Positions 26,146 to 28,594 of a stretch of DNA of 64,000 bases are shown here, in pieces; the first letter of the stretch is position 1; each line of letters begins with the position of its first letter. Source of the stretch: Streptomyces sp. BHT-5-2 (GTDB lineage Bacteria; Actinomycetota; Actinomycetes; Streptomycetales; Streptomycetaceae); NCBI RefSeq assembly GCF_019774615.1, contig NZ_CP081496.1, positions 5,332,001 through 5,396,000 on the forward strand. The letters are read 5' to 3'. Position numbers and translations under genes: made by a program. The notes under the pieces were generated by a model. It worked only from the letters and a program-made list of their open reading frames with translations, was not told where the DNA came from and ran no database searches.

Positions 26146-26226
26146 GTGTGAATGCGCCAACTCGGCGCGCCCGCTTCACACCCCGTGCGAAACGCTCACG
26201 TTGCGTCACTTCGCACGGGGTGTGAA
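26146..26226. promoter_or_regulatory. Paired 17-bp dyad operators upstream of a small membrane-protein gene
   Basis: TTCACACCCCGTGCGAA (26175-26191) and its exact reverse complement TTCGCACGGGGTGTGAA (26210-26226) are separated by 18 bases. A GTGTGAA half-site is at 26146-26152. Each 17-mer is itself a dyad (TTCGCAC-GGG-GTGTGAA, one mismatch between arms). A third identical copy precedes the regulator gene at 27187-28524. The remainder of 25997-26337 (26227-26337) holds only the leader of the small gene. Confidence 0.75.
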
Positions 26227-26337
26227 CCACTGACCCGTATCTCCCCGGCGCACACACTCCCGCCTTACACCCCTGCGCAGTTGACTGGTCGAGGTATCCA
26301 CCCGACCGTCACCAGGAGAAGGAAAGAGGAGCGGAAC

Positions 26338-26595
26338 GTGACCGCCCACCGGGACCCCGACATTCTCGCCGCCGACTTAGCGGAGCTGCGGCGCCTACTC
26401 GACGTGCGCACCGCCAAGGTCGACGGCCAGCTGCGGCTACAGGCCCAGCGCTGCGAGCAGAACACGCGGGACGCCGACGAACTCCAGGCCCGCCTCACGC
26501 GGTTGGAGAGCCGCCGCTGGCCGCTGCCCTCGCTCGCCGCACTCGCCGGGCTCGCCGCGGGGGCGGCCGCCTTGTGGCAGGCGTCCGGGCACTGA
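26338..26595 (+). CDS. Small coiled-coil, C-terminally membrane-anchored protein with a TTA codon
   Basis: 85 aa from GTG 26338 with a very strong GAGGAG six bases upstream. Residues 5-60 are charged and heptad-like (LAADLAELRRLLDVRTAKVDG...DADELQARLTRLESR), predicting a coiled coil; residues about 63-81 (LPSLAALAGLAAGAAALW) form one membrane segment, leaving the coil in the cytosol or outside. Codon 14 (26377-26379) is TTA, so translation depends on the rare leucine tRNA encoded by bldA, which in Streptomyces ties expression to development. No family recognised. It lies behind paired dyad operators. Confidence 0.8.
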   Translation: MTAHRDPDILAADLAELRRLLDVRTAKVDGQLRLQAQRCEQNTRDADELQARLTRLESRRWPLPSLAALAGLAAGAAALWQASGH

Positions 26596-26607
26596 GGCCG
26601 GCCGGCC

Positions 26608-27138
26608 TCAGCCGAGCCGGATGTGGTGGAGCATCAGCAGGGCCGCGGCCATGTTCGCGGCCGGCACCTCCCCCCTCGCCACCATGTCGGGCACCAGCTT
26701 GAGGTCGACCCACTCCCGCCGGTCCGACTCGAAGTCGTCCTGCGGGGCGCCGAGGTACTCGGCCCGGTCGGACCAGTAGATGTGGTGCCGCGCGTCGGTG
26801 AGGCCGTTGGACGGCTCCACCGAGAGGAGGTGTTGGAGGGGTCCGGGTCGCCACCCGGTCTCCTCCTCCATCTCCCGCGCGGCCGCGGCGGCCGGATCCT
26901 CCCCGTCCTCCACCACGCCGGCGGCCAGCTCCCAGCCCCAGCTGTCGGTGATGAACCGGTGCCGCCACAGCAGCAGCACCTCATTGGCCTCGTTGACCGC
27001 GGTGGCCACCGCCACCGGCCGCATCCGGATCAGGAAGTGATCCAGGTGACGGCCGTCGGGGAGTTCCACATCGGCCAGATTGACCCGGAACCAGGGGTTC
27101 GCGTAGACCGGCTTTTCGCTGAGATTGTTCCAACGCAC
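26608..27138 (-). CDS. NUDIX hydrolase
   Basis: 176 aa, GTG start 27138. The Nudix box is intact: GVVEDGEDPAAAAAREMEEETGW (about 74-96), with the metal-binding REMEEE core. The N-terminus EKPVYANPWFRVNLADVELPDG and the beta-strand arrangement resemble ADP-ribose/ADP-sugar pyrophosphatases, but substrate cannot be read from sequence. It is 48 bases downstream of the TPR-like regulator on the same strand and is probably co-transcribed with it. Convergent with the small TTA gene, 12 bases apart. Confidence 0.9.
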   Translation of the reverse strand: MRWNNLSEKPVYANPWFRVNLADVELPDGRHLDHFLIRMRPVAVATAVNEANEVLLLWRHRFITDSWGWELAAGVVEDGEDPAAAAAREMEEETGWRPGPLQHLLSVEPSNGLTDARHHIYWSDRAEYLGAPQDDFESDRREWVDLKLVPDMVARGEVPAANMAAALLMLHHIRLG

Positions 27139-27186
27139 GTAACTGCCACCTTCCGCTTGAGGGCCGGCAAGGTGACACGAGCCCGG

Positions 27187-28524
27187 TCACAGCGGAACGC
27201 GCAGCACCTCGTCGATGAGATCGGCAGCCTCGTCCGTCGCGGAGCTCCCGGTCTCCGCCAGATGCTCGCGCACCGCCCGCAGCCGGTCCCGCAGGCGTTG
27301 CGACTCCATGCCCCGGGCCTGCTCCGTCATCTCCGCGGCGTTGGCCACGGCCCGGTCCGCATCCCCTTGGCGCAGCTCGATATGGGTGAGCATGGCCAGC
27401 CGGTGAACCCGGCCGCGGTCGTGTGCGGGGGTGTCCACGGCGGCGTCCGCCTGCTCCCGGGCGGCCCGCAGGTCCCCGAGGCTGAGCAGCGCCTCCGCCA
27501 CTTGTACGTTCACCAGGCCCGGCTGCACATAGCCGGTCTCGTCGGGCTCCAGCCCCGGGCGGATCCGCTCCGCCGCGGCCTCGGCCCGCCGGATGCGGTC
27601 CAGTGCGCCGGTGCCGTCGCCCAGCCGCGCGTACGCCTTGGCCTGCATGGCGTAGAGGTCGGCGGAGAGCGCCGGGGTGAGCTGTCCGCCCGCGGCGCGC
27701 AGGGCCGCCTCCGCGAAGGCGACCGCCTGGCGGTGTTCCCGTACGAAGAGGGACTGGTTGACCAACAGCGCGATGATGTACGCGCCGAGTCCGCGGTCCC
27801 CGCTGGCCTTTGCCAGCCGCAGCGCCTGATGGAAGTAGCGCTGGGCCAGCCCGAGAGCGTCCGAGTCGTACGCGCAGATGCCCGCCACGGCCACCAGCCC
27901 ACCGGTCGCCCGGTGCAGCTGACGTCCCGTCGCGTCGCTGTAGCTGCCCCGCAGCAGCGGCGCCGCCTCGGTGTTGAGGAACCGCACGATGCGTGCTCTG
28001 GTAGCGATACCACCCGCCTTCCGGTACATCTGCTCGTAGTGGGTCCGCGCCGTCCGCAGCATCTCGATGTCGGCCATCCCGACCCGGGTCAGCCCGTCGC
28101 GCGAGACGTCGAAGTCCTCCGGCGGGTTCTCCCACTCCCATACGGGGATGATCGCCGAGGTGCCGGTGAGCGCGGGGGCCGCGACCACGTGCGGCCGCTG
28201 CTGCTCGTCGGACCGCCACAGCGCGGTGGCCCGCTCCACGAACCCCGACAACGGGGTCCCCGGCGCCTGCCGCGCCCCCGGCCCGCTGAGCCCGATGTCG
28301 GCCAGGCTCACCGGCCGGTGCAGCCGCTCGCCGAGGATCTCGCAGATCAGGTCCGGCACCTGCCCCCGCGGCCGCTGCCCCTTGAGCCACCGCGCCACGG
28401 CGGTGTGCTCGTAGCGCAGCGCGAGCCCGCGCCGCCGTCCGAGCTGGTTGATCCGCGCGGCGAGTCCGGCGTGCGAGACGCCGGACTCGTCCAGGATCGC
28501 ATCGAGCAGCGTGTTGGGCTCCAT
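27187..28524 (-). CDS. Large HTH/TPR-like transcriptional regulator
   Basis: 445 aa, ATG 28524. Residues 1-75 form an atypical XRE-like helix-turn-helix (LLDAILDESGVSHAGLAARINQLGR...LRYEHTAVARWLKGQRPRGQVPDLICEILGERL). From about 150 to 440 the protein is all-helical with repeated A-x-x-Y/L patterns (ARTHYEQMYRKAG, ALGLAQRYFHQALRLAKASGD, DLYAMQAKAYARLGDGTGALDRI) typical of TPR arrays. Such regulators are widespread in Streptomyces and some influence development and antibiotic output. A perfect copy of the 17-bp dyad lies 53 bases upstream, implying autoregulation. The NUDIX gene follows. Confidence 0.85.
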   Translation of the reverse strand: MEPNTLLDAILDESGVSHAGLAARINQLGRRRGLALRYEHTAVARWLKGQRPRGQVPDLICEILGERLHRPVSLADIGLSGPGARQAPGTPLSGFVERATALWRSDEQQRPHVVAAPALTGTSAIIPVWEWENPPEDFDVSRDGLTRVGMADIEMLRTARTHYEQMYRKAGGIATRARIVRFLNTEAAPLLRGSYSDATGRQLHRATGGLVAVAGICAYDSDALGLAQRYFHQALRLAKASGDRGLGAYIIALLVNQSLFVREHRQAVAFAEAALRAAGGQLTPALSADLYAMQAKAYARLGDGTGALDRIRRAEAAAERIRPGLEPDETGYVQPGLVNVQVAEALLSLGDLRAAREQADAAVDTPAHDRGRVHRLAMLTHIELRQGDADRAVANAAEMTEQARGMESQRLRDRLRAVREHLAETGSSATDEAADLIDEVLRVPL

Positions 28525-28577
28525 GCCTCGCCCCCAAGGACGTACGGACTCCGTAAGTCCAGCGTAATCAGGGGGAG

Positions 28578-28594
28578 TTCACACCCCGTGCGAA
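28578..28594 (-). promoter_or_regulatory. Third copy of the 17-bp dyad, upstream of the regulator
   Basis: On the minus strand this reads TTCGCACGGGGTGTGAA, identical in sequence and in orientation relative to the gene as the copy at 26210-26226. It ends 53 bases before the regulator start codon, a normal operator distance. Confidence 0.75.

What the first reader, a model, noticed from the sequence alone, without database searches (positions are those of the whole stretch)
26146..28594. Three identical 17-bp dyads link a TPR-like regulator to a small membrane-protein gene
Seen in sequence: TTCGCACGGGGTGTGAA occurs at 26210-26226, as its exact reverse complement at 26175-26191, and again (minus strand) 53 bp upstream of the regulator. 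Each unit is itself a dyad. Three perfect 17-mers in 2.4 kb are not chance. Inference: the regulator binds these sites, represses or activates itself plus the NUDIX gene, and controls the small coiled-coil membrane protein. This would be a compact regulatory circuit. I know no published regulon for the motif.
Basis: partly seen in the sequence, partly recalled or inferred. Interest (0 to 1): 0.68.

Follow-up and report, generated by a model that had tools for sequence, protein, structure and literature searches.

The report
Operator sites of a Streptomyces regulator
Three identical DNA sites in a Streptomyces genome look like docking sites for the regulator encoded beside them, which appears to control itself and a small membrane protein related to one that phages keep among their cell-bursting genes.

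Summary
In detail: three exact copies of a near-perfect dyad and no other copy with 0 or 1 mismatch in the 9.13 Mb genome. The site TTCRCACNNNGTGYGAA lies upstream of the orthologous regulator in 80 of 80 Streptomyces loci (68 exact, 12 with 1-2 mismatches) and of all 3 assessable orthologs from other families, 46-55% identical. In 121 Streptomyces genomes it goes with the regulator: 98 of 111 with it, 1 of 10 without. The regulator is an NsdA-family TPR protein, not NsdA itself. The small gene is the second target: 74 of 76 loci that hold it carry a site. The third copy is lineage-specific.

New here: the small protein belongs to phrog_5225, whose phage members sit in the lysis cassette behind the endolysin. 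Chromosomal copies at this locus group together among phage and prophage copies. Best reading: an autoregulated NsdA-family/NUDIX operon took a phage lysis-cassette protein as its dedicated target. Binding, sign of control and the small protein's activity are untested.

The parts
26175..26191 (-). Distal operator copy upstream of the small gene
   Evidence: Exact copy. 13 of 76 small-gene loci, all among the window's nearest relatives (L068-L083), have such a second site with 0-1 mismatch 146-166 nt upstream of the start, 35-56 bp from the proximal one.
26210..26226 (+). Proximal operator of the small gene
   Evidence: Exact copy. In relatives 73 of 76 small-gene loci have a site with at most 2 mismatches 90-120 nt upstream of the start; in 58 of the 73 it has 2 mismatches, mostly because the right arm reads GTGTGCG.
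26253..26258 (+). Putative -10 of the small gene (CACACT)
   Evidence: In the 73 aligned loci CACACNCTCCC (N: G 43, T 25, A 4, C 1) is nearly invariant; the hexamer CACNCT begins 27 nt after the end of the proximal operator in these. Its promoter role is inferred.
26338..26595 (+). Small membrane-protein gene, 85 aa: long helix 7-60 plus C-terminal hydrophobic helix 64-82; family phrog_5225
   Evidence: AlphaFold model, pLDDT 81.6, pTM 0.44; PHROG match 6.2e-18 for this protein, all 31 members of the alignment match; phage homologs. Membrane insertion is inferred from the sequence.
26608..27138 (-). NUDIX hydrolase gene, 48 bp downstream of the regulator on the same strand
   Evidence: Pfam NUDIX 3.8e-19; matched beside the regulator in 80 of 80 loci, cut by the contig end in one; start of the gene also beside the regulator in a different family, L039.
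27187..28524 (-). NsdA-family TPR regulator, 445 aa
   Evidence: NCBIfam NF053720, 396.6 bits against cut-off 75; model pLDDT 89.8 with an N-terminal helical domain 5-68 and an all-helical array 150-441.
28561..28566 (-). Putative -10 of the regulator (TACGCT)
   Evidence: TANNNT begins 12 nt after the end of the operator in 78 of 80 loci; in 39 loci of other searches, 30 at the same place, 4 one base further, 2 otherwise, 3 without a site. Promoter role inferred.
28578..28594 (-). Operator of the regulator gene, overlapping its inferred -35 region
   Evidence: Exact copy; best match within 300 nt upstream of the regulator has 0 of 14 mismatches in 68, 1 in 8 and 2 in 4 of 80 loci.

Best explanation
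The 17-mer is the operator of the NsdA-family TPR regulator encoded at 27187-28524. A dimer binds the dyad at its own promoter, over the -35 region, and so sets its own level and that of the NUDIX gene behind it, most likely by repression. It also binds upstream of the small gene at 26338, which runs towards the NUDIX gene and whose product is a captured phage lysis-cassette membrane protein (coiled-coil-like helix plus C-terminal membrane helix). A signal read by the TPR domain would change binding and so the dose of that membrane protein. Shown: site conservation, co-occurrence with the regulator, and the family of the small protein. Inferred: binding by this protein, dimerisation, repression of its own promoter (about 0.6; at the small gene the sign is open), the signal, the direction of capture, and what the membrane protein does.
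For: Only 3 copies in the genome, all here. Site in 80 of 80 orthologous loci, with C3, C5, A6, C7, G11, T12, G13 and G15 invariant while the bases next to it vary. Exact 14 of 14 upstream of orthologs at 58% (L208, same genus), 55%, 55% and 46% (L209-L211, other families); L212 is cut and could not be judged. Exact motif in 98 of 111 Streptomyces genomes with the regulator and 1 of 10 without, Fisher 3.9e-7. Of the 13 with the regulator but no exact motif, 11 have a 1-2 mismatch site at the same place. Of 54 motif loci inspected, 45 adjoin the regulator and 1 the small gene. 74 of 76 small-gene loci carry a site. Small protein in phrog_5225, found behind the annotated endolysin in 6 of 7 phage regions opened.
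Against: No binding or expression data. The sign is not settled: the operator is centred near -32 at the regulator but near -47 at the small gene if CACNCT is its -10, and a locked spacing upstream of -35 is as usual for activators. Regulator-bearing loci L180, L184 and L206 have no recognisable site. 8 of 54 inspected motif loci are at neither gene. 45-46 of 111 regulator-bearing genomes showed no small gene at the locus, so it is not essential to the regulator. The phage relation gives the family's setting, not its activity; all 7 opened phage records call it a hypothetical protein. The genomes are related, so counts are not independent events.
Confidence: 0.72

Rival explanations
1. The regulator is an activator at the small gene, and perhaps at its own promoter too, with the operator standing in for a -35 element as the pho box does for PhoB (recalled comparison).
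For: The -10-like hexamer keeps its distance from the operator in the 73 aligned small-gene loci and in 78 of 80 at the regulator, although distances to the start codons vary. By eye no -35 hexamer stands at the regulator.
Against: At the regulator the operator covers the -35 region, the classic place for autorepression. In the 46%-identity ortholog L211 the site ends 22 bp before the start codon with no TANNNT after it, which fits a repressor better. The spacing is one base longer in 4 and different in 1 of 36 further loci with a site, besides L211.
Confidence: 0.35
2. Another transcription factor owns the motif, and the regulator gene is just one of its targets.
For: Eight of 54 inspected motif loci are not at this locus, and one genome without the regulator, G089, has a motif.
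Against: Strong co-occurrence with the regulator, the same site beside orthologs in other families, and by eye no shared gene context at the eight other places, as expected of chance matches.
Confidence: 0.08
3. The repeats act as RNA hairpins or terminators, or are a mobile repeat, rather than operators.
For: Inverted repeat structure.
Against: At the regulator the site lies upstream of the conserved -10-like hexamer, so it would not be in the transcript. Outside the locus there are no copies with 0-1 mismatch. Base identity, not only pairing, is invariant. RNA folding was not computed.
Confidence: 0.03

Closest known systems
NsdA (SCO5582) and NsdB (SCO7252), TPR-like negative regulators of Streptomyces antibiotic production
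   Same: Same NCBIfam subfamily NF053720.
   Different: Scores 101.7 against the NsdA cut-off of 830; this genome has a separate true NsdA (L030, 942.5 bits). NsdA of S. rimosus is reported to bind 49 target genes (PMC12243394, abstract and passages; 'motif' and 'palindrom' do not occur in its main text); the regulator here seems to be local.
Autoregulated XRE-family regulators with palindromic sites upstream of their own gene
   Same: Dyad in the own promoter; a 2025 survey (PMC12565409, abstract and passages) rests on this rule.
   Different: The survey's main text does not mention NsdA, TTCACAC or GTGTGAA; its supplementary motif tables were not read. No Pfam HTH model matched the regulator.
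Lysis-cassette membrane protein of Streptomyces phages (SV1 gp23, Eklok gp22, phrog_5225)
   Same: About 34-54% identity in local alignments, similar length and order of parts, shared RWPLPS-like segment in most.
   Different: Here it stands without endolysin or holin gene beside it, at a conserved chromosomal place behind the regulator's operator.
LysF1b single-TMD holin of mycobacteriophages Girr and NormanBulbieJr (PMC13056207, abstract and passages)
   Same: Second, single-TMD membrane protein of a cassette that also has a two-TMD protein.
   Different: LysF1b has an N-terminal TMD, N-out-C-in; ours has a C-terminal hydrophobic helix. The paper links LysF1b to DUF2746; ours has no Pfam match.

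Membership tests
NsdA family TPR-like regulatory protein (NF053720) | Score above the curated cut-off over the whole length | tested here: met
   396.6 bits, cut-off 75, residues 6-430
NsdA itself (NF050130) | Score above the equivalog cut-off 830 | tested here: not met
   101.7 bits; the genome's NsdA is L030 with 942.5 bits
XRE-type DNA-binding proteins | N-terminal helix-turn-helix domain | tested here: inconclusive
   Helices 5-14, 18-31, 40-47, 56-68 in the model, but no Pfam HTH match
TPR proteins | Superhelical array of helix pairs in the C-terminal part | tested here: met
   Foldseek hits listed are mostly TPR proteins, best E 5.6e-4, though with low TM-scores of about 0.3-0.4 on the query; all-helical 150-441
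RRNPP peptide-sensing regulators | HTH plus TPR with a cognate signal peptide | tested here: inconclusive
   RapH at rank 6 of the fold search (E 1.4e-3) and RapJ at E 0.054, no better than other TPR proteins; no signal peptide gene was looked for
Phage lysis-cassette protein family phrog_5225 | Significant match to the profile over most of its length | tested here: met
   E 6.2e-18, profile positions 3-90 of 92; 31 of 31 members match
Phage lysis-cassette protein family phrog_5225 | Gene lies next to endolysin and holin-like genes | tested here: not met
   Neighbours are a 3-hydroxybutyryl-CoA dehydrogenase gene and NUDIX; of 14 copies away from the locus that I chose to inspect, 11 have an endolysin match beside them
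LysF1b-type holins | Single N-terminal TMD, N-out-C-in | tested here: not met
   Hydrophobic helix is C-terminal, residues 64-82
Holins in general | Membrane lesion or lysis on expression | not testable with these tools
   Needs expression

The most novel reading that the evidence does not exclude
Streptomyces captured one membrane protein of a phage lysis cassette in one event and put it under a dedicated operator of a TPR sensor-regulator. The cell thereby gained a switchable membrane effector: either it permeabilises or lyses hyphae in a programmed way, or, as a partial copy of the cassette, it pairs with the lysis proteins of incoming phages and spoils their timing, a lysis-interference defence kept by the host.
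Probability: 0.25. Interest if true: 0.82.

Novelty: new variant of a known kind. Interest (0 to 1): 0.62.

Why it matters
It gives a likely cognate operator with base-level conservation for an NsdA-family regulator, so ligand and target questions about this family become testable with one short probe. It also shows a phage lysis-cassette protein held as a chromosomal gene beside the regulator in about half of the Streptomyces genomes sampled (65 of 121), apparently under host control, a direct handle on controlled membrane damage or phage interference in these bacteria.

Tried and rejected
Wrong frame: I took the small gene from 26340, which is out of frame; those results for the small protein are void and were redone from 26338. 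One search scanned loci without turning those on the minus strand and was redone. Wider regulon: the eight motif places away from the locus share, by eye, no gene context. Paralogs: upstream of 13 NsdA-family matches in this genome the best resemblance has 3 or more mismatches, but for only 8 of the 13 does the match start near the N-terminus, so for the other 5 that stretch is not the promoter; the genome-wide count of 3 places is the firmer statement. A pair of weak matches at 4571306/4571505 (L005, L014) was read and left. Module shared with phages: SV1 gp24, beside the phage homolog, is an NsdA-family regulator, and ToastyFinz gp24 is its 84% relative. I rejected common descent of the pair, because in BLAST they are 28-30% identical to our regulator and 36-38% to the paralog L025, and the best site in those two phage stretches has 4 or more mismatches. 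Paper searches for the motif, for four S. coelicolor locus tags guessed from memory and by other descriptions gave nothing relevant. The sequence search against solved structures gave no convincing relative. The consensus promoter scan found no sigma-70-like site. dN/dS for the small gene (median 0.46 over 254 pairs, largest 0.86) suggests purifying selection, but the simple method is unsure at this G+C bias.

Full report
Observation. The 17-mer TTCGCACGGGGTGTGAA is present exactly three times at the stated places. Shuffled windows give on average 0.19 matches with up to three mismatches, and none of 100 reached three. In the whole genome there are three exact copies, none with one mismatch, 3 with two and 17 with three; the reversed control pattern gave 6. 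The looser pattern TTCRCACNNNGTGYGAA has the same three places only (one search counts 3 on each strand).

Genes. The regulator (27187-28524, minus) is in the NsdA family of TPR-like regulators (NF053720, 396.6 bits, cut-off 75), not NsdA itself (101.7 of 830 bits); the genome's NsdA is a different gene, L030, with 942.5 bits. A NUDIX gene follows 48 bp behind it on the same strand. The small gene runs from 26338 to 26595 (85 aa), towards the NUDIX gene. A 3-hydroxybutyryl-CoA dehydrogenase gene lies before it. The next gene beyond the regulator was read as pheT from its ORF translation, by recognition and not by a search.

Conservation at the regulator. Taking the best match within 300 nt upstream of the regulator, 68 of 80 match all 14 fixed positions of TTCRCACNNNGTGYGAA, 8 miss one, 4 miss two. 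Positions C3, C5, A6, C7, G11, T12, G13 and G15 never vary, while the bases just behind the site do. A TANNNT hexamer begins 12 nt after the site in 78 of 80. In 39 loci it is at the same place in 30, one base further in 4, different in 2, and 3 (L180, L184, L206) had no site; these genomes overlap in part with the 80. The operator thus covers about -40 to -24 if the hexamer is the -10. Orthologs of 58% (L208, same genus), 55% (L209, L210) and 46% (L211) identity, the last three from other families of the class, carry an exact 14 of 14 site; a fourth from another family, L212, is cut at its start and could not be judged. In L211 the site ends 22 bp before the start codon with no TANNNT after it, which favours repression there.

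Co-occurrence. Of 121 Streptomyces genomes at least 95% complete, 99 have the exact motif; the reversed pattern is in 1. The regulator is in 111. 98 of the 111 have the motif against 1 of the 10 without regulator, Fisher p 3.9e-7 (genomes are related, so this is not a count of independent events). Of the 13 with regulator but no exact motif, 11 have a site with 1-2 mismatches at the same place, 2 (L180, L184) none. I looked at 54 motif loci: 45 adjoin the regulator, 1 the small gene, 8 neither, in contexts that look unlike. The place list was cut, so the position of the other motifs was not checked.

Conservation at the small gene. 76 of the 80 loci hold the small gene; of the other four, L106 ends before it and L124, L125 and L144 gave no match. 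74 of 76 have a site with at most two mismatches within 220 nt upstream; 73 lie 90-120 nt before the start, one (L084) at 153; L093 and L094 have none at that limit. In most the right arm reads GTGTGCG and the centre varies (GGG, ACC, GCC and others), as expected of a dyad read by its arms. CACACNCTCCC stands at a fixed distance behind the site in the 73, nearly without variation. If CACNCT is the -10, the operator is centred near -47, not over the -35, so the sign of control may differ from that at the regulator. The distal extra copy of the window is shared with 13 of the 76 loci, all near relatives, at spacings of 35 to 56 bp.

What the small protein is. It has no Pfam or NCBIfam match. The model is a long helix 7-60 and a second helix 64-82 (pLDDT 81.6). 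Against PHROGs all 31 aligned members match phrog_5225, a family of unknown function. The window's protein finds 23 of 50,697 phage records, the ortholog of L142 finds 50, all Streptomyces phages. I opened seven phage regions. In six (Eklok, SV1, Mojorita, Alderaan, ToastyFinz, BabyGotBac) the gene is the second small gene behind the annotated endolysin; the first is hydrophobic by eye, annotated holin in Alderaan and in phrog_4316 for SV1 and Eklok. In phiSAJS1 all neighbours are hypothetical. In Eklok two further small genes follow on the same strand; in the other six the next gene is on the opposite strand. Copies in Streptomyces chromosomes away from the locus lie in prophage-like cassettes: 11 of 14 regions that I chose have an endolysin match beside the gene, 3 (L251, L253, L255) do not. 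The window's own genome has only the copy at this locus. 83 of 121 genomes have some copy; 65 have it within 3 kb of the regulator, one more, G017, has both on different contigs. In a tree of 54 rows the 31 core copies are on one side of one branch (support 89/90, in 88% of bootstrap trees), with phage and prophage copies on the other. The support is moderate, the root is unknown and 85 columns are few, so capture from a phage is the likely but not proven direction.

Mechanism. Most likely the regulator binds the dyad as a dimer, represses its own operon, and uses the second operator to set the dose of the membrane protein; the TPR domain (fold search led by TPR proteins) would take the signal. 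Repression at the own promoter is inferred from position. At the small gene I leave activation and repression nearly even.

Literature. The mycobacteriophage paper PMC13056207 (abstract and passages) reports a single-TMD protein, LysF1b, acting as a holin in a two-protein cassette; its TMD is N-terminal, ours C-terminal, so I do not file ours with it. The NsdA papers PMC12243394 (outline and passages), PMC5567329 (passages) and PMC6637917 (passages) treat NsdA and NsdB. In the held library I found no paper on this motif (text searches; other searches), and saw none on a host-kept lysis protein under such a regulator in the listings, which were read as listings only. Supplements were not searchable.

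Noticed in passing
L214 4245-5594 (phage SV1 gp24) and L219 3362-4711 (ToastyFinz gp24): SV1 carries an NsdA-family TPR regulator (422 bits), and ToastyFinz an 84% relative of it, right beside the lysis cassette, facing the homolog of the small gene as the host operon does; the likeness of arrangement may be coincidence.
   Followed up: partly
window about 26280-26287 and the same region in relatives: A GTTGACTC-like element recurs in many of the printed small-gene upstream sequences (by eye, output cut) between the CACACNCTCCC block and the start; it may be a second promoter's -35 or another factor's site.
   Followed up: no
Small-gene upstream regions of many relatives, e.g. L142, L110: A GCATATGC palindrome stands just behind the proximal operator in many relatives but not in the window (by eye).
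   Followed up: no
L005/L014 (genome C1:4571306-4571521): Two weak motif matches (3 and 2 mismatches) lie about 200 bp apart in one region; whether this is chance was not tested.
   Followed up: partly
L087, L115, upstream of the regulator: Some relatives have the end of what looks like an SpoIIE/RsbU-type phosphatase gene just upstream of the regulator, so the neighbour on that side changes between lineages (recognised by eye, not searched).
   Followed up: no
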